A stretch of 64,000 nucleotides of DNA from Bacteroidota bacterium (lineage in GTDB: Bacteria; Bacteroidota; Bacteroidia; Flavobacteriales_D; Crocinitomicaceae): contig JASBTZ010000007.1 of NCBI GenBank assembly GCA_030148165.1, positions 62,001-126,000 on the forward strand. Reading direction: 5' to 3'. A program made the position numbers and the translations under genes. The notes under the pieces were generated by a model that was given only the letters and a program-made list of their open reading frames with translations, had not been told where the DNA came from and made no database searches. This document shows, piece after piece, positions 1-62,039 of this stretch (the stretch's first letter is position 1; each line of letters begins with the position of its first letter).

Positions 1-1518
1 ATTGAATTTAATTGATTTTTTATAACTAAGTGATGATTTCAGGTCAAGGTATTCTTTCTTATTCTCGCTGGACTTGTCCCAACTCAAATCAAACAGTTCT
101 AGTTTTCGTAAGTTCTTGCTTTCTTCAACAAACAATTCGAGAGCGCGTCTGTTTGCATCAATAATTCTATCTCCGCTTAATAAAAGAATCGCATCATTAG
201 ATTCTTCGAAGATCATTTTGTATTTCTGTTCGCTTTGTTTTAAGGCTTGCGCTGTTTTCTGACTTGAAGTAAGATCAATAACTGATCCCTCGATACTACC
301 CGTAAGTTTATCAAGGTACCAACTAAAAATAAAGGTCTTCATTTCTCCATTATTCAGGTAGAACTGCGTCTGGTAATTTTGAATGTTTTCCGTTTGATTT
401 AGTGTGTCGAGTATTAATTCCCAATCATCATCATACTCAGTTGTAAATAGCGGATCACCTATTTGAAGTGTGTTATCAAGCATCTTAAAGAAAACCTCAT
501 TCCCATCAATTATAACTGACCTGTGATCAATTGTGAAGACCCCTGCTCTATTTTTATGATAGAGGTTTCTGTATTTACGCTCACTGATTTCAAGCTCTTC
601 TCGCTTCACGCTTTGCTGTGTAACATCATTCAGGTTAGCTAACCATAGGACTCCATTTTTAAGTGTTATTCTACTGATGTTAAACTCAATATCATACCGT
701 CTATTATACTGATTAAAGGTAATTACCTTTGTGAATCGCATCCCTCTTTTTAGCTCTTTGATTGTTTTGATCTCGGAGTTAGAAAAGAGATCAAAAAAGT
801 CCTTGTTTAAATCACTTTCTTCTTCATCGTTTTGAGTAAAATACCTAAATGCTTCATTGTTATAATCGATTATTTTCCGATTACCGGTCATCGTGAAAAG
901 AATGTATCCCGATCCAGGATTATTCATAATCTTTTTCAGGTACTGGGAGTAATCATTAATTTTCCTTAATACATTATTTCGTGCATACAGCATTAATATG
1001 TTACTCAGACCAAATAAAATAAATAAGGCTAAAAGAAAATTAACATCAATGACCGGTTCTTTCATTTTGAAACCGGCATCAACAAATAATAAAGTAACTA
1101 ATACATGATATAAAATGGCTGGATAGAGCCTTTGAATGATAATGACTGATGCTAGATAATAGATCAGAAAAAGAAAAAGATACTTATAGGTGAAATACGC
1201 TAAATACATCTCCTGGAATGCGATAATAGTTATCACGTTCAAGTGAAAGAACAGCATATATAGAAGACTCTGTTTAAAAAAGGGTGTAAATCTGCATATC
1301 AGATAATACACAACAAAACCGCCTGTATACGAAAGTGCTAAATAAACAAATGTTTTAGGCGCGTTAAAAAAGTAGAGTATATATGCTAAGCTTGGTGCTA
1401 TTAAAATCGCACCGATACCGTTAAAAAAACTTATGCGATTAAACCCATCTTCGCCTTCAAATCTTTCGACCTGATCATTTTGATTTGGAAATATATTTGA
1501 TAACAAAGAAAGCCTCAT
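1..1518 (-). CDS. Multi-PAS membrane sensor protein, 3' end outside window
   Basis: An open frame runs on the minus strand from an ATG at 1518 to the window edge: 506 codons without a stop, so the C-terminus is missing. Residues about 35-190 are strongly hydrophobic and form several membrane helices. Three PAS-like segments follow: about 195-310 (core around FTMTGNRKIIDYNNEAF), about 315-425 (AGVFTIDHRSVIIDGNEVFF) and about 440-506 (EESNDAILLLSGDRIIDANR). In the PAS family this layout normally precedes a histidine kinase or other signalling output domain, which would lie beyond position 1. The ligand and output are unknown. The gene is transcribed away from rpiB, with a long AT-rich gap between them. 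Confident as a sensor, not as a kinase. Confidence 0.8.
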   Translation of the reverse strand, partial: MRLSLLSNIFPNQNDQVERFEGEDGFNRISFFNGIGAILIAPSLAYILYFFNAPKTFVYLALSYTGGFVVYYLICRFTPFFKQSLLYMLFFHLNVITIIAFQEMYLAYFTYKYLFLFLIYYLASVIIIQRLYPAILYHVLVTLLFVDAGFKMKEPVIDVNFLLALFILFGLSNILMLYARNNVLRKINDYSQYLKKIMNNPGSGYILFTMTGNRKIIDYNNEAFRYFTQNDEEESDLNKDFFDLFSNSEIKTIKELKRGMRFTKVITFNQYNRRYDIEFNISRITLKNGVLWLANLNDVTQQSVKREELEISERKYRNLYHKNRAGVFTIDHRSVIIDGNEVFFKMLDNTLQIGDPLFTTEYDDDWELILDTLNQTENIQNYQTQFYLNNGEMKTFIFSWYLDKLTGSIEGSVIDLTSSQKTAQALKQSEQKYKMIFEESNDAILLLSGDRIIDANRRALELFVEESKNLRKLELFDLSWDKSSENKKEYLDLKSSLSYKKSIKFN

Positions 1519-2043
1519 ACTATGTGCAAGCTAAATAATTAAATAAAATCTTTTTATCTAAATAATTTATTCTTTTTATTAGGGCTGTTGATTAGTTGAA
1601 AAGATAATACTTTGTTATAGTGATATATCTATTATTAAATATTTAGGGGGATATATCAACAACTTATTAACGAAACAATCCTTTGTAAAACGAAAGATCA
1701 AGGACCTTTTAAACAAAAGCACGAAAAGTATAAATGTTTAAAAAAAGACAATGTTAATTATAATTCTGCTGTTTGTAACGAGGGCATAAGTTGTAAAAAA
1801 TAAGCTTGTTTGATCGTTGTTATTATCAATTATTTTGTTGGGTATACAAGTTTTCTTAATATCCTAGATTTAACTTTGAATAGTTATTCTTACCTATTAA
1901 CATAAAAACAAATTATTGCGTTAATAACTCAAACATAACTACAGCTGAAAATCAAGGGATTAATAATTTGTGAATTTCTTAATTGTTTGAAAGTTGTAGC
2001 TATTGTTAATTAAATTTAGATTTGAATAAACAAACAAAAAACC
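1519..2043. other. AT-rich intergenic region between sensor gene and rpiB
   Basis: This is 525 bp of very AT-rich DNA between two divergent genes. I found no open frame with coding character and no convincing hairpin terminator. The rpiB promoter lies at its right end. The length is unusual for this otherwise compact region, so an untranslated leader or small RNA is possible, but nothing in the bases identifies one. Confidence 0.6.
1994..2024 (+). promoter_or_regulatory. Predicted Bacteroidota-type promoter of rpiB
   Basis: TTG at 1994-1996 and TAGATTTG at 2017-2024 match the Bacteroidota -33 (TTG) and -7 (TAnnTTTG) elements, with 20 bp between them. The predicted transcription start lies about 15 bp before the rpiB ATG. 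Confidence 0.6.
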
Positions 2044-3806: not shown

Positions 3807-4349
3807 ATGGACGACTCATCTCTTATAGAAAAATGCAGAGCAGGGGATCAACGTGCACAGCGCGAGTTGTTTGAAAAGTATGCACCCAAAATGCTCGGTG
3901 TTTGTTTGCGTTATGCAAAGAACAAAGAGCAGGCGGAGGATGTGTTGCAGGAAGGTTTTATAAAGGTTTATACCAAACTTGAGCATTATCAAAGCAAGGG
4001 GTCACTAGAAGGGTGGATTCGTCGAATAATGGTTAACACATCGTTAGATCATATTCGTAAGAATGTAAAGTTTCAGGGAGACAGATCTGTTGAAGATGTT
4101 GGATTCAAATTGGAGCAGAACACCTTTAATAGTGATCAGTTGTTTGAAGAGGATTTGTTAAAACTAATTAACGCGATGCCGCCGGGATATAAAGTCGTAT
4201 TTAACATGTTTGCGATAGAAGGGTATTCACACAAAGAAATAGCAGAAGAGCTAGGTGTGTCAGAAAACACTTCAAAATCGCAATACTCACGAGCGAGAGC
4301 ATACTTAAAAGCAAAACTAGAAGAACTAGGAATTGAACGAGAAGGATAA
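3807..4349 (+). CDS. ECF-family RNA polymerase sigma factor
   Basis: 180 residues, typical of ECF sigma-70 factors. Region 2 spans about 9-75, including the DVLQEGFIKVY core-binding helix. Region 4 spans about 115-172, with the helix-turn-helix YSHKEIAEELGVSENTSKSQ. It directs RNA polymerase to a dedicated promoter set, which cannot be read from this window. The downstream gene overlaps its 3' end by 17 bp in another frame, the usual layout of a sigma factor with a membrane anti-sigma or sensor partner. Confidence 0.92.
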   Translation: MDDSSLIEKCRAGDQRAQRELFEKYAPKMLGVCLRYAKNKEQAEDVLQEGFIKVYTKLEHYQSKGSLEGWIRRIMVNTSLDHIRKNVKFQGDRSVEDVGFKLEQNTFNSDQLFEEDLLKLINAMPPGYKVVFNMFAIEGYSHKEIAEELGVSENTSKSQYSRARAYLKAKLEELGIEREG

Positions 4350-5262
4350 CATAAAAGACTTGTTCTCAGAAAAATTGAGAAACTATGAGGCTAAAGTAGA
4401 CCCACAATTGTGGGCGAATATTAGTTCTCAAATTGGTGCGCCTGCAAGTGCTGCTGCCGGCGGCACAGGCCTGTCTATATTAACTAAAACTATAATAGGC
4501 GCCGCTATTATAGGTGGAGCTGTTTTAACAACTGTTTACGTAATGACTCCCGGCGAAGAAGACACTAAACCTGTGGTTATAGAACATCAAGCTGCTGTGG
4601 ATAATCAAGATGAGCCTACACAGGGAATCAAAAAGGAAAACACACAGGATGTTGCCTTCACAGATAATTATACTGCTGAAGAACAAAAAGGAACAGACAC
4701 CGAGACTATTGAGTTCCCACTCGACATATATACCGAGCACTTGGCTTCTGACGATGACCCGCTGAACGAGGTTGATTTTGATGATAGCCTGTTGCCGGAT
4801 ACACCTATGAATAATCAATCCGGCGAGGAGGTTGATAGTGAAGCTTCATCTAGTGAAGAGTCTGCCAATAGCGAAGAGACTGGAAAGGCGGAAGAGACAA
4901 ATAGCCACAAAGAAGAATCAAACCAAGAAGACCGGGAAGAAGAGCAGGAAACCAGAACTGTAATTACCTTCAAGCTGCCTAATATTTTTAATCCAGGAGG
5001 AAGCTTCAACCCTTATTTAACACTTGATGGTGCGAATATCGAAAATGAAGTTTCGCTTGATGAACTGGAAGACCTTCAGGTTGTAGTGCTTGACTCTTAT
5101 AGTAAAGTGGTGTTTAGATCTTCTGACCCATACCTTAAGTGGGATGGAACAGCCATGAATGGTTCTCCGCTTCCAGAGGGAACATATATAATTTACCTGA
5201 CAGCGACAACTAAAGACAAGATTCCTGTTAACGGATCGAGTCAACTTTACATTCAGCGCTAG
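4333..5262 (+). CDS. Single-pass membrane partner of ECF sigma (putative anti-sigma) with CHU_C-like C-terminus
   Basis: 309 residues from a TTG at 4333 that overlaps the sigma gene. There is no nearby in-frame ATG, and AGGA lies two bases upstream. Residues 1-40 (containing KDLFSEKLRNYE) are a short cytoplasmic segment of the kind found in Bacteroidota sigma-linked proteins. One membrane helix lies at about 46-70. Then comes a long Glu/Asp/Ser-rich linker (about 75-210). The last 95 residues contain FNPGGSFNPY, VVLDSYSKVVFRSS, KWDGTAMNGSPLPEGTYIIY, resembling gliding-motility-associated CHU_C domains. The predicted topology places that domain in the periplasm. No zinc anti-sigma motif (HxxxCxxC) is visible, so the anti-sigma role rests on gene order. 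Confidence 0.7.
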   Translation: MNEKDNIKDLFSEKLRNYEAKVDPQLWANISSQIGAPASAAAGGTGLSILTKTIIGAAIIGGAVLTTVYVMTPGEEDTKPVVIEHQAAVDNQDEPTQGIKKENTQDVAFTDNYTAEEQKGTDTETIEFPLDIYTEHLASDDDPLNEVDFDDSLLPDTPMNNQSGEEVDSEASSSEESANSEETGKAEETNSHKEESNQEDREEEQETRTVITFKLPNIFNPGGSFNPYLTLDGANIENEVSLDELEDLQVVVLDSYSKVVFRSSDPYLKWDGTAMNGSPLPEGTYIIYLTATTKDKIPVNGSSQLYIQR

Positions 5263-12044: not shown

Positions 12045-12461
12045 ATGAAAGAAGGATTTGTTGTCGTGGATAGACTCTCTATCCCATCAGATTTTGGATC
12101 GATAAGGCAGGTTGAGAACTTAGTGGATGATGTTTGCAACCGACTGGAGGTGAACGAAGACTACTACGGAAACGTCTTAATAGCTGTAACTGAGGCAGTT
12201 AACAACGCAATAGAACACGGAAACGGCATTGGATCTGAACTAAATGTAGACTTATCAGTTGGTGATAAAGAGTCAGATTTTTGCTTTAGCGTTAAAGATC
12301 ACGGTCGAGGTTTTGATTTTAATAATTTGCCTGACCCAACTGCACCGGAGAATATCGAGAAAGAAAACGGACGAGGAATATTTTTAATGAAATCTTTATC
12401 AGAAGAAGTTGTTTTTGACGACAACGGATCAAATGTTAGTATATATTTCACGAAGTTCTAA
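12045..12461 (+). CDS. RsbW-like ATP-binding protein (GHKL serine kinase/anti-sigma fold)
   Basis: 138 residues comprising one HATPase domain. N-box EAVNNAIEHGN (about 49-59), G1 DHGRGFD and G2 NGRGIFLMK are all present. Proteins of this RsbW/SpoIIAB type phosphorylate anti-anti-sigma proteins or bind sigma factors. No matching STAS partner is visible here, so its target is unknown. The stop overlaps the ybeY start (TAATG), suggesting coupling. Confidence 0.85.
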   Translation: MKEGFVVVDRLSIPSDFGSIRQVENLVDDVCNRLEVNEDYYGNVLIAVTEAVNNAIEHGNGIGSELNVDLSVGDKESDFCFSVKDHGRGFDFNNLPDPTAPENIEKENGRGIFLMKSLSEEVVFDDNGSNVSIYFTKF

Positions 12462-12886
12462 TGGTTGAATTATTCTTTGAGGAAACAGCAATTCTGGATC
12501 TTGATCCGGAATTTTTTGTTTTATGGCTTGAAAAGCTGTGTAAAAAACACAATCGGTCATTGGGGGATATAAATATTATTCTTTGCTCTGATGAATATTT
12601 GTTACAAATGAATAAAGATCATTTACAGCATGATTACTATACAGACATCATTACCTTTAATTACAATGACGACAACAAAATTTCCGGAGATTTGTTTATA
12701 TCTGTTGATCGTGTTAGAGAAAACGCAGCCGAACATCGTGAAAGATTTCCCCGCGAATTAAATCGGGTAATAGCGCATGGCGTTTTACATTTAATCGGAT
12801 TTAATGATAAAACGGACCAGGAACGTCTCGAAATGAGGACGCGTGAAAATGAAGCTTTGGAATTAATTGTTTCACGTGAAACATGA
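12461..12886 (+). CDS. ybeY: rRNA maturation endoribonuclease YbeY
   Basis: 141 residues. YbeY is a metal-dependent RNase involved in 16S rRNA 3'-end processing and ribosome quality control. The C-terminal motif reads HGVLHLIGFND: two metal-binding His residues are present, but Asp occupies the position of the third His in the usual H-x3-H-x5-H pattern. I believe this variant also occurs in other Bacteroidota. The last codons coincide with a perfect parS site, so the end of the coding sequence is shaped by a DNA-binding site. Confidence 0.92.
   Translation: MVELFFEETAILDLDPEFFVLWLEKLCKKHNRSLGDINIILCSDEYLLQMNKDHLQHDYYTDIITFNYNDDNKISGDLFISVDRVRENAAEHRERFPRELNRVIAHGVLHLIGFNDKTDQERLEMRTRENEALELIVSRET
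12868..12883. promoter_or_regulatory. parS centromere site 1
   Basis: TGTTTCACGTGAAACA is a perfect 16-bp palindrome and an exact match to the bacterial parS consensus bound by ParB/Spo0J. It lies inside the last codons of ybeY. No parA or parB gene is in this window. Confidence 0.93.
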
Positions 12887-12905
12887 TTCTATTTATTATT
12901 TGATG

Positions 12906-12913
12906 TAATTTTG
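12906..12913 (+). promoter_or_regulatory. Possible -7 element upstream of mnmG
   Basis: TAATTTTG matches TAnnTTTG and overlaps the first two bases of the second parS site. No TTG is correctly spaced upstream, so the promoter is tentative. Confidence 0.35.
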
Positions 12914-12927
12914 TTCCACGTGGAACT
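12912..12927. promoter_or_regulatory. parS centromere site 2
   Basis: TGTTCCACGTGGAACT contains a 14-bp perfect palindrome and differs from known parS variants only at the outermost base. It starts 44 bp after the first site, in the short gap before mnmG. Two closely spaced copies make chance occurrence very unlikely. Confidence 0.88.
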
Positions 12928-12936
12928 TAATATGGG

Positions 12937-14811
12937 ATGTTAAAAAAATATGACATAATAGTTGTTGGGGCGGGACACGCTGGTTGTGAGGCTGCAAACG
13001 CTGCTGCTAAAATGGGCAGTGAAGTGTTGCTGATAACTATGAACATGAACACCATCGCTCAAATGAGTTGTAATCCCGCCATGGGAGGTGTTGCTAAAGG
13101 ACAAATCGTTAGGGAAATTGACGCTTTAGGTGGGGGATCAGGAATAATCAGTGACAAAAGTGCGATTCAATTCAGAATGCTGAACCGATCAAAGGGTCCT
13201 GCAATGTGGTCGCCAAGAACCCAGAACGACCGCATGCGCTTTGCAGAAGAGTGGAGATTAATGCTTGAACAGAACAATAGGGTGGACTTTTGGCAGGACA
13301 TGTGCACGGGTTTGATTGTAGAGGGTAATCAGATTAAAGGCGTAAAAACAGCGATTGGATTAGAGATTTTTGCAAACAGCGTCATTCTGACAAACGGAAC
13401 TTTTTTAAATGGATTGATTCATCTTGGTGAAAAGCAATTCGGAGGAGGAAGGGCTGGAGAAAGAGCTGCCACGGGAATAACAGAAGACCTGATAAAGTTG
13501 GGCTTTGAGACCGGTAGAATGAAGACGGGAACACCGCCAAGGGTAGATGGACGGTCGTTAGATTATTCCAAAATGGAAGAGCAACTGGGAGATGAAGAAC
13601 CAACTAAGTTTAGTTATTCGGAAGAGACTAAACCATTGGAGAATCAACGCTCTTGTTATATCACGTATACCAATGATAAAACACACGAAATATTACGAGG
13701 AGGCTTTGATCGATCGCCGATGTTTAACGGAGCCATTAAAAGTACGGGCCCAAGATATTGTCCAAGTATAGAAGATAAAATAAGTCGATTCGCGGAGCGC
13801 GACCGACACCAGATTTTTGTGGAACCGGAAGGGTGGGACACCGTTGAAATTTATGTCAACGGTTTTAGCACCTCATTACCGGAAGAGGTTCAGCTTGAAG
13901 CCATGAAAACAATTCCAGGATTTGAAAACGTGAAAATGTTCAGGCCGGGTTATGCCATCGAATATGACTACTTCCCCCCAACCCAATTAAAACATAGCCT
14001 GGAAACAAAACTCGTCGAAGGACTCTATTTTGCCGGGCAAATTAATGGAACAACAGGCTATGAAGAAGCGGCTTGTCAAGGATTAATGGCTGGAATAAAT
14101 GCACATCTAAAACTGCAGAAGAAAGAACCTTTCGTGCTTAATCGTAGTGACGCTTATATTGGAGTTTTAATAGATGACTTGATTACGAAAGGAACCAAAG
14201 AACCTTATCGAATGTTTACCAGTCGTGCTGAATACCGCATACTTTTGAGACAAGATAATGCAGATATTCGTCTAACACCAATTGGACATGAAATTGGACT
14301 AGCCAGCGATGAGGCCCTAAGGAAAGTAGAAGCCAAAGTCAGCGGCACAGAACAACTTAAAAAATCTTTGAGAAAAGAAGGGGTCAGCCCTGATTCTGCG
14401 AATCAATTGTTAGCGAGCATAAAGAGTTCTCCGATTAATCAACAAGTAAAGCTAAGTTCATTAATTACCCGACCAGGTATCAACCTAAATGATCTTTTGA
14501 GTATTTCTGATAAGAGTAAAAACCTCGCAGTTAAATTATCAAAGGAGCATGAAGATGTCGTGAGCCAAACGGAGATCCAATTAAAATATGAAGGGTATAT
14601 TAATCGCGAACAAGATGTTGCCGATAAAATGAACAGATTGGAAGAAGTTAAGATTCCGTCGGATCTGGATTATTCCAAATTAAAAAGTATCAGCACGGAG
14701 GCAAAAGAAAAACTAACGAAGGCTCAACCGGAAACAATTGGACAAGCATCCAGGATCAGCGGCGTATCACCAAGCGACGTATCTGTCTTGCTGGTTTACC
14801 TCGGTCGATAG
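12937..14811 (+). CDS. mnmG: tRNA uridine-5-carboxymethylaminomethyl modification enzyme MnmG (GidA)
   Basis: 624 residues, normal length. With MnmE it installs the carboxymethylaminomethyl group on wobble U34 of certain tRNAs using FAD and tetrahydrofolate. The FAD-binding [11 protein letters not shown] (about 10-20) and the [12 protein letters not shown] segment (about 45-56) are typical. The start is the second of two close ATGs, since the first at 12932 meets a stop after three codons. mnmE lies at 33.3 kb in the same window. Proximity to parS fits the frequent location of gidA near replication origins. Confidence 0.97.
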
Positions 14812-58691: not shown

Positions 58692-60053
58692 TTAGGTGAA
58701 CAGCGCCTTGACAACTTCGGTGATTTTGCCGCACTCAATCAGCTCTATCTTGAAATCACTTTGTTTTATTCCTTTGTTGTATTTCGAAATAATGATCTTT
58801 TCAAACCCCAGCTTCTCCGCCTCACGAATGCGTTGATCAATGCGGTTTACAGGTCGAACCTCTCCTGACAAACCTACTTCCGCTGAAAGCGCGATGTGAT
58901 TATTGATCGGGATGTCTGCATTGGAAGACAACACGGCAGCAACAACCGCTAGGTCGATTGCCGGATCATCAACCTTAATTCCACCGGCAATGTTAAGAAA
59001 GACATCCTTAGCCCCAAGTTTAAACCCGCAGCGTTTCTCCATGACAGCTAATAACATGTTCAATCGTTTGCTATCGAAACCCGTTGAAGAGCGTTGAGGT
59101 GTACCATATGCGGCTGTACTGACAAGGCCCTGAACTTCAATTAGCATAGGCCTCATTCCCTCAAGAGTTGCACCGATTGAAACCCCACTTAGTGATTGAT
59201 CGGTATTTGTTATTAGTATTTCGGATGGGTTTTCTACCTGTCGAAGACCAGAGCCTACCATTTCATAGATACCTAGTTCATTAGTGCTTCCGAATCGGTT
59301 TTTAATAGACCTTAACAATCGGTAAACATGATTTCTATCTCCTTCAAATTGCAGTACAGCATCGACCATGTGTTCCAAAACTTTCGGTCCGGCTAATGAA
59401 CCTTCCTTCGTAATGTGGCCAATCAGAAATACTGGGACACTACTTTGCTTCGCATAACGAAGTAATTGGGCTGTGCATTCACGGACCTGAGAAATGCTCC
59501 CTGGAGAACTTTCTATTTGTGGAGAGTGCAGTGTTTGTATCGAATCGATTACCAATAACTCTGGCTGAATTTCTTCTGCATGCTGAAATATATTTTGAAT
59601 ACTGGTTTCAGTAAGGATATAGCAATTAGGATTATTTATACCAATCCTCTCAGCTCTCATTTTAATCTGTTGATCGCTTTCTTCTCCGGAAACATAAAGC
59701 ACCTTCTTGTCTTTCATCGCAATCGAAAGTTGCAATAGGAGTGTTGATTTACCAATACCCGGTTCACCACCGAATAAGATTAATGAACCCAATACTAACC
59801 CTCCACCCAGAACACGATTGAGTTCTTTGTCAGGGAGTTCTATGCGACGGTGCTCCCGATCAGAAATATCTCCAATCTGCTGAGGCTTATTGTCTCTTTG
59901 TGATTTCGAAAAAGCAACAACTTGTGGAACCTGCTTCTGCACAATCTCTTCTACGAATGTGTTCCATTCGCTGCATGAAGGACACTTCCCCAACCATTTA
60001 GGAGTTTCATGTCCGCAATTTTGACAGAAGAATGCCGATTTAACTTTAGCCAT
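58692..60053 (-). CDS. radA: DNA repair protein RadA (Sms)
   Basis: 453 residues. Zinc finger CQNCGHETPKWLGKCPSC (10-27), RecA-like ATPase with Walker A GGEPGIGKST (95-104), the RadA-specific KNRFG motif (251-255) and a C-terminal Lon-like domain. Promotes branch migration during recombination repair. Start supported by the zinc finger position. Confidence 0.97.
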   Translation of the reverse strand: MAKVKSAFFCQNCGHETPKWLGKCPSCSEWNTFVEEIVQKQVPQVVAFSKSQRDNKPQQIGDISDREHRRIELPDKELNRVLGGGLVLGSLILFGGEPGIGKSTLLLQLSIAMKDKKVLYVSGEESDQQIKMRAERIGINNPNCYILTETSIQNIFQHAEEIQPELLVIDSIQTLHSPQIESSPGSISQVRECTAQLLRYAKQSSVPVFLIGHITKEGSLAGPKVLEHMVDAVLQFEGDRNHVYRLLRSIKNRFGSTNELGIYEMVGSGLRQVENPSEILITNTDQSLSGVSIGATLEGMRPMLIEVQGLVSTAAYGTPQRSSTGFDSKRLNMLLAVMEKRCGFKLGAKDVFLNIAGGIKVDDPAIDLAVVAAVLSSNADIPINNHIALSAEVGLSGEVRPVNRIDQRIREAEKLGFEKIIISKYNKGIKQSDFKIELIECGKITEVVKALFT

Positions 60054-60114
60054 TGTTGTAATTCGTTAGACTAAAGTTAATCAATCAATTGAAAGAATTT
60101 AAAGAAAGAAGGGA

Positions 60115-60324
60115 TTAACCAGCGTATGCTTTTCGCCCGAATTGGTGACACTTGCGTTTGCGCTTTTTATTAATTCGACGCTCGCGATGGCCACCTCTTT
60201 TTTTGCCCTTGCCGGGGTAGTATAATTCCACATCAGAATTAGTCGAATGGAATGTGGCTGATGACTCACTGGCGGACGCGCCCATTGATAAAAATAAGAT
60301 TGATAAGGAGATAAATAATTTCAT
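60115..60324 (-). CDS. Small secreted, strongly basic peptide
   Basis: 69 residues. Signal peptide MKLFISLSILFLSMGASA, a short neutral part, then a Lys/Arg-rich tail (GKGKKRGGHRERRINKKRKRK) with one cysteine. No family recognised. A cationic exported peptide might bind nucleic acid, LPS or a surface polymer. Short, so coding status is moderate. Confidence 0.5.
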   Translation of the reverse strand: MKLFISLSILFLSMGASASESSATFHSTNSDVELYYPGKGKKRGGHRERRINKKRKRKCHQFGRKAYAG

Positions 60325-60382
60325 TTTCTAGTGATTGATATTCTATTAAAACTGTATTTCAGGAAAAATATTGCGAATAAGG

Positions 60383-60706
60383 TTAATTTCTTGGAAGTCT
60401 TCTGTCCAGCATCACATATAACAAATAAAGAAGTCCGGGAATGTAAACTAATGGATGAAGAAAACCAGAGGCTAATATGCATACCGACGAAAGAAGTCCA
60501 CCAACGAGCTCCCACTTATAAGCCATTCCGTAGCCCGCCAAAATGCCGACATATAATAGAATTGCTCGCCAATCCATTGAAAAATCAAATTCATCAAAAA
60601 AGCCTCTCCAGACCGCTATGAGAGCGACTAAGATAATAGCCCCTCCCCAAATGCGGGCAATCCATAAAATGGCTGTGGTTGCGACTTTGTAGTTTCTGTT
60701 ATCCAT
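60383..60706 (-). CDS. Small membrane protein
   Basis: 107 residues with three to four hydrophobic helices (AILWIARIWGGAIILVALIAVW, AILLYVGILAGYGMAYKW, LLSSVCILASGF, YIPGLLYLLYVML). Resembles small integral membrane proteins common in Bacteroidota; function unknown. Confidence 0.62.
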   Translation of the reverse strand: MDNRNYKVATTAILWIARIWGGAIILVALIAVWRGFFDEFDFSMDWRAILLYVGILAGYGMAYKWELVGGLLSSVCILASGFLHPLVYIPGLLYLLYVMLDRRLPRN

Positions 60707-60768
60707 GATGTAAAAATAAGCAAATCAATGTAGTATGCAGAAAAATGATTTATGATCTGCCCTTTATT

Positions 60769-60776
60769 TACATTTG
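60769..60776 (+). promoter_or_regulatory. Predicted -7 element before the PnuC gene
   Basis: TACATTTG is an exact TAnnTTTG match 30 bp before the ATG. No spaced TTG is seen. Confidence 0.45.
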
Positions 60777-60806
60777 TACTTGAACAAGTGAACTTAGTCG
60801 CGCGAC

Positions 60807-61409
60807 ATGTATGAGTTTTTTGAGGGAGTCTTAACAGGTATAAAGGAAACAACCTGGGTAGAATGGTTAGCTGTTGCAGTCAGTATTATCTACGTTGTGC
60901 TCGCAGCGTTAAAATCGATCTGGTGTTGGTTATTTGCCTTTATTGGTTCTACCCTCTATGTATATCTCTGCATTGATGCAGATTTATACCTTGAAAGCGG
61001 GCTACAATTTTTCTATGTTGTTATGGCGATAATCGGATGGCTTTCCTGGAAGCAGAGTCAAAATAAACGCCTCGACATTATTCAATGGTCTCTTGGTCAG
61101 CACGTGATCAACATTGTATCGAGTACAATTGTTGCCTTATCATTAGGGTGGATTTTTGACGAATATACGGACCAACAGAACCCATATGTGGATGCGGTAA
61201 CTACAGTTTTTAGTTTAGCTGCCACATTTATGGTAGCCAGAAAAGTTCTTGAAAACTGGATATATTGGATTGTCATTGATGCGATTTCAGTTTGGTTATA
61301 TGCTGAACGCGGCCTGAATCTTTCTTCCCTTTTATTTCTTGTTTATACACTTATCGCAGTCGTCGGTTTCTTTAGCTGGTTGAAACAATTTAAAAGACAA
61401 AGGGCATGA
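60807..61409 (+). CDS. PnuC-family vitamin transporter (thiamine PnuT or nicotinamide riboside PnuC)
   Basis: 200 residues with seven to eight membrane helices and the Trp-rich PnuC features (SIWCWLFAFIGSTLYVYLCIDADLYLESGLQFFYVVMAIIGWLSWKQS). PnuC-type proteins passively import nicotinamide riboside or thiamine, trapped by intracellular phosphorylation. The kinase gene overlaps its stop (ATGA), and a TPP riboswitch with a TonB receptor follows, which favours thiamine. Substrate cannot be read from the sequence alone. Confidence 0.88.
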   Translation: MYEFFEGVLTGIKETTWVEWLAVAVSIIYVVLAALKSIWCWLFAFIGSTLYVYLCIDADLYLESGLQFFYVVMAIIGWLSWKQSQNKRLDIIQWSLGQHVINIVSSTIVALSLGWIFDEYTDQQNPYVDAVTTVFSLAATFMVARKVLENWIYWIVIDAISVWLYAERGLNLSSLLFLVYTLIAVVGFFSWLKQFKRQRA

Positions 61410-61918
61410 TCAGAATTGCGATTACAGGCCCGGAATCAAGTGGCAAAACGACCTTAGCCAGACAACTCGCCGAGCGCCTAAATGCAGATTTTATTCCTGA
61501 ATTTGCCCGACAATATTTGGAAAACAAAGAAGGAAAATACACCCAAGCTGATTTGGACGAAATCGCAAGAGAGCACAAAGAAAGCGTAAGTAAATCGCAA
61601 AAATCAATTAAAATTATAGATACAGATTATTTTGTACTAAAGGTTTGGTCCGAATATCGTTTCGGCAATTCGACTTCCTACATAGATGAGTTGATCGCAG
61701 AAGAAGTTTTCGATTTTCACTTTGTTTGTAAACCAAATATTCCATGGGAGGATGACCCGCTTCGAGAGAATCCGCATGATCGCGACGAGCTGTTCGATTT
61801 ATACATCCAACACCTTGATCATTATCAGAGACCCTATGAAGTTATTCAGGGTTCTGTTGAAGAACGGATTGAGAAATGTCTTAAGATTCTTAACGAGAGA
61901 TTGAATTTAAACTATTAA
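61406..61918 (+). CDS. NadR-like AAA-type kinase
   Basis: 170 residues. P-loop GPESSGKTT (8-16) with FIPEFARQYL, TDYFVLKVWSEYRF and a lid-like WEDDPLRENPHDR region. Matches the C-terminal ribosylnicotinamide-kinase domain of NadR; the NMN adenylyltransferase and DNA-binding parts are absent. With PnuC it would phosphorylate and trap the imported vitamin (nicotinamide riboside, or perhaps thiamine, given the neighbours). Confidence 0.85.
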   Translation: MIRIAITGPESSGKTTLARQLAERLNADFIPEFARQYLENKEGKYTQADLDEIAREHKESVSKSQKSIKIIDTDYFVLKVWSEYRFGNSTSYIDELIAEEVFDFHFVCKPNIPWEDDPLRENPHDRDELFDLYIQHLDHYQRPYEVIQGSVEERIEKCLKILNERLNLNY

Positions 61919-61923
61919 ATTTG
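61916..61923 (+). promoter_or_regulatory. Predicted -7 promoter element for the TPP riboswitch-receptor transcript
   Basis: TAAATTTG exactly matches TAnnTTTG. It overlaps the kinase stop codon and places the transcription start close to the first base of the riboswitch. The -33 TTG is not well placed. Confidence 0.5.
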
Positions 61924-61929
61924 GACCGT

Positions 61930-62004
61930 CTCTAAGGGGTGCCCTGCTAAGGGCTGAGATTATACCCATTGTACCTGCTCAGGATAATGCCTGCGAAGGG
62001 AAGT
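61930..62004 (+). promoter_or_regulatory. TPP riboswitch (THI element)
   Basis: Contains the conserved blocks in order: GGGGTGCC (61936-61943), GGGCTGAGAT (61951-61960), ACCC (61964-61967), GTACCTGCTC (61971-61980), GGATAATGCC (61982-61991) and GCGAAGGGAAGT. It binds thiamine pyrophosphate and lowers expression of the receptor downstream when the vitamin is plentiful. Confidence 0.97.
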
Positions 62005-62011
62005 GACTAAA

Positions 62012-62039
62012 GCTAATTATTAACACACAGAGAATTAGC
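62012..62039 (+). promoter_or_regulatory. Possible riboswitch expression-platform hairpin
   Basis: GCTAATT (62012-62018... pairing arm) and AATTAGC (62033-62039) form a seven-base stem 8 bases after the aptamer. It lacks a following T-run, so control may be translational or through an alternative stem. Confidence 0.45.

What the first reader, a model, noticed from the sequence alone, without database searches (positions are those of the whole stretch)
12868..12927. Two parS centromere sites at the ybeY/mnmG junction
A perfect TGTTTCACGTGAAACA and a near-perfect TGTTCCACGTGGAAC lie 44 bp apart. The first is written into the last codons of ybeY, so coding and chromosome-segregation signals are superimposed. 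The second overlaps a TAnnTTTG -7 candidate before mnmG, so ParB spreading could influence mnmG transcription. parS sites usually cluster near the origin, so the window is probably origin-proximal, although no dnaA or parAB is here.
Basis: partly seen in the sequence, partly recalled or inferred. Interest (0 to 1): 0.75.

Follow-up and report, generated by a model that had tools for sequence, protein, structure and literature searches.

The report
Chromosome centromere sites beside mnmG gene
Two copies of the DNA signal that bacteria use to pull their copied chromosomes apart sit between the genes ybeY and mnmG, one of them written into the last codons of ybeY, and many relatives in the same phylum keep the signal at this same spot.

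Summary
A perfect parS (12868-12883) and a one-mismatch parS (12912-12927) lie 44 bp apart, start to start, and are the only such symmetric sites in the 3.5-Mb assembly. The genome holds one ParB beside a ParA on another contig, with the two residues that mark parS-specific ParBs. GC skew has opposite signs on the two sides. The best reading is a chromosomal centromere close to the origin.

Comparison adds more. In a sample of 60 Bacteroidia genomes, 36 of the 40 with an exact parS carry one within 2 kb of mnmG; of the other four, one has it inside ybeY. Among 105 loci with both ybeY and parS, 51 encode a whole parS inside ybeY, in two reading frames (tails like VSRET/VPRGT or FHVKH/FHVEQ). 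Tails found by peptide alone use parS codons in 49 of 50 cases, so the DNA is kept beyond the protein.

The mnmG-promoter idea is plausible here (TAATTTTG, 12906-12913, overlaps site 2) but not general: many relatives carry parS downstream of mnmG. parS/ParB is a known kind; the address and the two-frame YbeY tail were not found in the papers I could search.

The parts
12868..12883 (.). parS site 1, perfect palindrome TGTTTCACGTGAAACA, wholly inside the ybeY coding sequence
12912..12927 (.). parS site 2, TGTTCCACGTGGAACT, one outer mismatch; occupies -25 to -10 relative to the mnmG start codon
12461..12886 (+). ybeY (PF02130); the Pfam match ends at residue 134 of 141, so the parS-encoded tail lies outside it
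12937..14811 (+). mnmG (gidA), 624 aa; named by recall of the family, no family search was run on it
   Evidence: 80 related loci, 65-79% identity in the best segment
12906..12913 (+). TAATTTTG, match to the Bacteroidota -7 promoter consensus TAnnTTTG; last two bases shared with parS site 2
   Evidence: consensus from PMC7366714 (passage read)
12045..12461 (+). HATPase_c_2 protein immediately upstream of ybeY (context gene; a HATPase_c_2 protein also precedes ybeY in L145)

Best explanation
The two palindromes are a tandem pair of chromosomal parS sites near the replication origin. ParB, made from the parAB genes on another contig, loads at them and spreads or slides over ybeY-mnmG and neighbouring DNA, and the ParA-ParB machinery moves the newly copied origin regions apart. 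The site next to ybeY has been absorbed into the gene's free 3' tail, where two of the three frames are always open through the site. Shown here: the sites, their uniqueness, the ParB and ParA genes, ParB's two parS-type residues, the skew change, the conserved address. Inferred: binding, spreading and segregation.
For: Only symmetric sites with at most one mismatch in the assembly. Single PF02195 ParB, E 5.2e-34, overlapping a ParA gene. R and G where parS-specific ParBs have R173 and G201 and Noc has Q and R (alignments, positions matched by eye; residue roles from PMC7383237, passages read). Skew: 14 blocks of 5 kb left of the sites average -0.025 and 50 sampled blocks right of them +0.049, Mann-Whitney p 6e-4. 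Same-order single-contig genome G014: fitted origin between 3.82 Mb and the contig start on 3.98 Mb, sites at 15.5 and 17.4 kb, dnaA at 462 kb, 0 of 60 permutations fit as well. Address: 19 of 20 genomes (own and 19 relatives, compared by eye); 36 of 40 genomes with an exact site in a 60-genome class sample (one of the 36, G053, rests on a 22-residue mnmG match); all 48 loci read from searches for parS pairs that named no gene (47 with mnmG, 1 with ybeY only; 40 distinct genomes, the window's own included).
Against: No binding or segregation data. Site 2 carries one mismatch. Of six other parS-contacting residues listed in PMC7383237, this ParB differs at two by my count (S for G170, G for S172; the Noc shown also has G at 172). 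20 of 60 class genomes have no exact site, and 18 of 80 mnmG loci have none within 900 nt of mnmG. A close exact pair is uncommon: 18 of 295 genomes. Local skew is noisy: one 8-kb bin right of the sites (C3 86-94 kb) is negative, -0.068. The Chryseobacterium fit agrees in position (3.02-3.10 Mb, sites at 3.03 Mb) but 13 of 60 permutations fit as well. No DnaA-box cluster in the stretches scanned.
Confidence: 0.93

Rival explanations
1. The pair is first of all an operator: ParB bound at site 2 sits on the mnmG transcription start and represses or times mnmG, coupling tRNA modification to origin copy number.
For: TAnnTTTG occurs within 150 nt upstream of mnmG in 70 of 134 loci, against 6, 7, 11 and 23 of 134 for four scrambled or reversed patterns. 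It overlaps a parS in 12 loci (the window's own among them) and lies between two parS in 12. The site nearest mnmG starts at -35 to -21 in 67 of 113 loci that have one upstream. PMC7022226 (passages read) reports that P. aeruginosa ParB represses genes next to two intergenic parS sites.
Against: In the 60-genome sample 26 of 55 mnmG-near sites are downstream of mnmG. Eleven of the 12 parS/-7 overlaps are the window's own locus or near relatives, and 6 is the only offset at which the two motifs can overlap, so the fixed register (12 of 12) is no evidence. In Saprospiria-like genomes most sites lie elsewhere. PMC7022226 also reports unchanged expression near parS in B. subtilis without Spo0J.
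Confidence: 0.2
2. The palindromes act in RNA, as a hairpin or terminator at the end of ybeY.
For: The stretch folds better than shuffles (-22.9 kcal/mol, z -3.2, 3 of 200 shuffles as good), as a pair of palindromes is bound to.
Against: 62 of 246 sites have C and A at positions 5 and 12 on the mnmG strand, which breaks the RNA pair, against 34 with the tolerated T/G. No run of T follows site 1 or 2. Sites also lie in other gene contexts.
Confidence: 0.02
3. Chance palindromes, or a motif conserved only because the YbeY tail peptide is conserved.
For: The YbeY tail peptide recurs among relatives.
Against: 0 of 100 shuffles. Two different peptides arise from two frames (29 and 28 sites). 49 of 50 tails use parS codons although VSRET has 1152 synonymous spellings; the test is weaker for FHVK/E, where few spellings exist.
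Confidence: 0.01

Closest known systems
Chromosomal ParABS centromere (parS, 16-bp TGTTTCACGTGAAACA type)
   Same: Same palindrome, a ParA-ParB gene pair with parS-type ParB residues, position near a GC-skew switch.
   Different: parAB and dnaA are on other contigs. The sites are anchored to ybeY-mnmG, and one is part of the YbeY coding sequence.
Origin gene set of other phyla (gidA, gidB, parA, parB among the origin genes named in PMC2099444, passage read)
   Same: gidA (mnmG) lies near the origin and parS.
   Different: Here parAB is on another contig; in G014 dnaA is about 0.45 Mb and in Chryseobacterium (G039) about 1.9 Mb from mnmG.
Noc/NBS
   Same: ParB-family protein binding a palindrome.
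   Different: NBS has a different sequence (PMC7383237); the only ParB here has R and G, not Q and R, at the two deciding positions.
sopC repeats of plasmid F (recalled, not tested)
   Same: Tandem palindromes at about 43-bp spacing.
   Different: Plasmid type, about 12 copies, different sequence.

Membership tests
Chromosomal ParABS parS site | 16-bp palindrome matching the parS consensus, beyond chance | tested here: met
Chromosomal ParABS parS site | ParB encoded in the same genome, with ParA | tested here: met
   ParB by PF02195; ParA by its sequence (KGGVGKTT) beside it, not by a family search
Chromosomal ParABS parS site | ParB carries parS-specificity residues R173/G201 | tested here: met
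   alignments, positions matched by eye to the residues named in PMC7383237; two of six other contact residues differ
Chromosomal ParABS parS site | Sites clustered near the replication origin | tested here: met
   skew of opposite sign on the two sides in the own contig, and in G014 a fitted origin within about 0.2 Mb; the Chryseobacterium fit agrees but is weak
Chromosomal ParABS parS site | ParB binds, loads and spreads there; loss impairs segregation | not testable with these tools
   needs ChIP-seq or a binding assay
ParB-regulated operator of mnmG | Promoter element overlapped by the site, and ParB changes expression | tested here: inconclusive
   TAATTTTG overlap here and in 12 of 134 loci in all; no expression data
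Noc/NBS | ParB paralogue with Q173/R201 | tested here: not met
   one ParB only, with R and G

The most novel reading that the evidence does not exclude
In Bacteroidota the centromere is tied to ybeY-mnmG because ParB at parS also sets the output of this origin-proximal unit. Cells would thus couple the tRNA-modification enzyme MnmG and the ribosome-maturation enzyme YbeY to origin duplication, and the YbeY tail peptide is a by-product of that centromere.
Probability: 0.15. Interest if true: 0.8.

Novelty: new member of a known kind. Interest (0 to 1): 0.5.

Why it matters
The sites suggest a gene-anchored marker (ybeY-parS-mnmG) for the origin and centromere of many Bacteroidota, where dnaA can be a poor guide; PMC10197239 (passage read) reports that the origin does not always coincide with dnaA. 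They also give a clean case of a protein tail dictated by a DNA site: the same 16 bp is read in two frames to give unrelated peptides. The conserved parS-mnmG neighbourhood makes ParB control of a housekeeping gene directly testable.

Tried and rejected
Helical phasing of paired sites: 75 pair distances from the listed rows (range scanned 24-54 bp; the list was cut) show humps near 37 and 46, but the Rayleigh signal is flat over periods 9-11 and weak against a Gaussian null (p 0.007 for all, 0.08 for the genus that dominates, 0.03 for the rest). Not claimed.

Fixed register of the -7 element and parS (12 of 12 at offset 6): this is the only offset at which the two motifs can overlap, so it carries no weight.

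Third reading frame never used (0 of 57 sites): explained by a TGA stop only when position 12 is A (140 of 246 sites); when it is G the frame is open, so part of this absence is unexplained.

Origin by DnaA boxes: at most 2 boxes (TTATCCACA, recalled consensus, up to 1 mismatch) per 500 bp in contig C3 1-60000, the window and C3 130001-170000; no cluster.

RNA hairpin: disfavoured by the C/A sites.

Prior description of the ybeY/mnmG address: the paper searches showed none, judged from their listings and from passages of PMC10197239, PMC7022226, PMC8653839, PMC2768785, PMC2099444 and PMC13342612; the other listed papers were not opened. The most relevant paper (Livny et al. 2007, PMC2168934) is not held, so it may already list Bacteroidetes sites; I saw nothing of it.

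Full report
OBSERVATION. The window holds TGTTTCACGTGAAACA at 12868-12883 and TGTTCCACGTGGAACT at 12912-12927. The next best match in the window has two mismatches, and 0 of 100 shuffles gave as many matches. In the whole assembly (3,506,720 bases, 18 contigs; window = contig C3, 62001-126000) one perfect and two one-mismatch matches exist. Two of these three are this pair, and the third is asymmetric and on another contig. Site 1 is read as I-V-S-R-E-T-stop at the end of ybeY. ybeY is confirmed by Pfam PF02130, whose match ends at residue 134 of 141, so the parS codons lie outside it.

PARB AND PARA. The genome has one ParB_N domain protein, on contig C14, overlapping a ParA-like gene with a KGGVGKTT motif (ParA judged by its sequence, not by a family search). 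Its closest solved relatives are ParB-family and Spo0J proteins, with Noc close behind. In the alignments it has R where parS-type ParBs have R173 and Noc has Q, and G where ParB has G201 and Noc has R (positions matched by eye). [quoted passage not shown] Of the six further contact residues named there, this ParB keeps four by my count and differs at two (S at 170, G at 172).

ORIGIN. On contig C3 the 5-kb blocks left of the sites average a GC skew of -0.025 (14 blocks) and the sampled blocks right of them +0.049 (50 blocks, out to 570 kb), Mann-Whitney p 6e-4; one 8-kb bin on the right (86-94 kb) is negative. The cumulative skew is lowest at 58.0 kb and almost as low at 70.0 kb; the sites are at 74.9 kb (2 kb of the contig, 60001-62000, were not read). 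dnaA is on another contig. In the same-order genome G014 (one contig, 3.98 Mb, sampled at 20 stretches of 20 kb) the best-fitting origin lies between 3.82 Mb and the contig start, with 0 of 60 permutations as good. Its sites flank mnmG at 15.5 and 17.4 kb, and dnaA is at 462 kb. In Chryseobacterium sp. ZHDP1 (G039, 4.9 Mb) the best fit is 3.02-3.10 Mb, the sites are at 3.03 Mb and dnaA is at the contig start, but 13 of 60 permutations fit as well, so this case is only consistent. PMC10197239 (passage read) used parS clusters plus skew to place origins in gut bacteria, including two Bacteroidetes, and warned that dnaA does not always mark the origin.

CONSERVED ADDRESS. Of 20 genomes (the window's own and 19 relatives) 19 have a site with at most one mismatch close to mnmG. 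The twentieth has no site, and only a fragment of its mnmG was found, at a contig edge (compared by eye). Of 80 mnmG loci from genome contigs, scored over 900 nt on each side and at most one mismatch, 37 have a site upstream only, 1 downstream only, 24 both and 18 none; a few of these loci are cut short by contig ends. In a class sample of 60 genomes (own included), 40 have an exact TGTTYCACGTGRAACA, and 36 of these 40 have one within 2 kb of mnmG: 55 of 68 sites, 29 upstream and 26 downstream. One of the 36 (G053) rests on a 22-residue mnmG match. Of the 13 remaining sites, nine belong to G074, which also has sites at mnmG; seven of the nine lie on contig C24, where an array of ~99-bp spacing starts inside ybeY and runs to the contig end. 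One (G079) lies inside the end of ybeY. Two (G098, G069) are 25 and 43 kb from mnmG, and one (G170) is on another contig. Searches for parS pairs that named no gene hit 18 of 295 and 53 of 296 genomes, so a close pair is the minority arrangement. All 48 loci read from them (40 distinct genomes, own included) carry mnmG (47) or ybeY alone (1). The other 23 genomes hit, most of them outside the class, were not read, and its list was cut short.

WHERE IT IS MISSING. The 18 mnmG loci without parS include many Saprospiria-like genomes. Of the ten such loci read around their sites (L142-L151), eight have the sites beside threonine synthase (Pfam-confirmed in L142; the others by the same N-terminus, by eye), one (L145) has them directly after the ybeY stop, followed by a different gene, and one (L150) elsewhere. 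Four of 21 genomes searched had no site. So parS can move, and it stayed with ybeY in L145 and G079 where mnmG was not beside it.

TWO READING FRAMES. In 134 distinct loci (111 with ybeY, 105 with ybeY and a site; this set includes loci found through parS, so it is not an unbiased frequency), 51 have a whole parS, with at most one mismatch, inside ybeY. These hold 57 sites, seven of them in the body of the gene and the rest in its tail: 29 in the frame that reads V-S/P-R-E/G-T, 28 in the frame that reads F-H-V-K/E, and none in the third frame. The third frame meets a TGA when position 12 is A but is open when it is G, so its absence is only partly explained. Searching the tails by peptide alone, 49 of 50 use parS codons (26 of 27 VSRET-like, 23 of 23 FHV-like), and the exception differs by one base. 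VSRET has 1152 synonymous spellings (arithmetic); FHVK/E has few, so that half of the test is weaker. The relatives are not independent, but two unrelated peptides from one DNA word show that the DNA is what is kept.

PROMOTER. PMC7366714 (passage read) gives TAnnTTTG as the Bacteroides fragilis -7 element and says it was confirmed in Flavobacterium johnsoniae. It occurs within 150 nt upstream of mnmG in 70 of 134 loci, against 6, 7, 11 and 23 of 134 for four control patterns. It overlaps a parS in 12, lies between two parS in 12 and lies inside ybeY in 23. So the region packs promoter, centromere and coding sequence together. Whether ParB affects mnmG is open; the frequent downstream sites argue that regulation is not the general reason for the address.

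VERDICT. This is very likely a real chromosomal parS pair near the origin. The system is known. The ybeY-mnmG address shared across the phylum's sampled members and the centromere-dictated YbeY tail in two frames are the new part, as far as the searches named under Tried and rejected reach.

Noticed in passing
window 1301-2043: AT-rich stretch (GC down to 24% in 300-bp windows, lowest at 1751), about 11 kb upstream of the parS pair and close to the cumulative-skew minimum; a candidate for the origin itself, but part of it overlaps the end of an ORF and no DnaA-box cluster was found.
   Followed up: partly
23 of 134 loci, among them L029, L030, L060, L109, L112: The mnmG -7 promoter element TAnnTTTG (often as TATCTTTG, in tails such as YLSLR) is written into ybeY, so the end of ybeY can carry the promoter of the next gene, as it carries the centromere in others.
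   Followed up: partly
L020, L066, L101, L103, L104, L113, L118: Some relatives have a further parS-like site (up to 1 mismatch) inside the body of ybeY, about 127-145 nt before its end.
   Followed up: no
57 parS sites inside ybeY: None uses the third reading frame although that frame is open whenever position 12 is G; unexplained.
   Followed up: no
L248 (G074:C24) and L142: Arrays of parS at about 99-bp and 89-108-bp spacing (7 exact sites each), unlike the pair here.
   Followed up: no
L142-L149, L151: In Saprospiria-like genomes parS sits mostly beside threonine synthase; some are followed by an ORF that by eye resembles the one after ybeY in L145 (a sub-threshold Peptidase_M1 match), suggesting relocation of the site.
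   Followed up: partly
window 61924-62018: TPP riboswitch, + strand (Rfam RF00059).
   Followed up: no
window 3807-5262: ECF sigma factor followed by an overlapping ORF whose C-terminus barely passes the Pfam cut-off for a type IX secretion signal domain (CHU_C).
   Followed up: no
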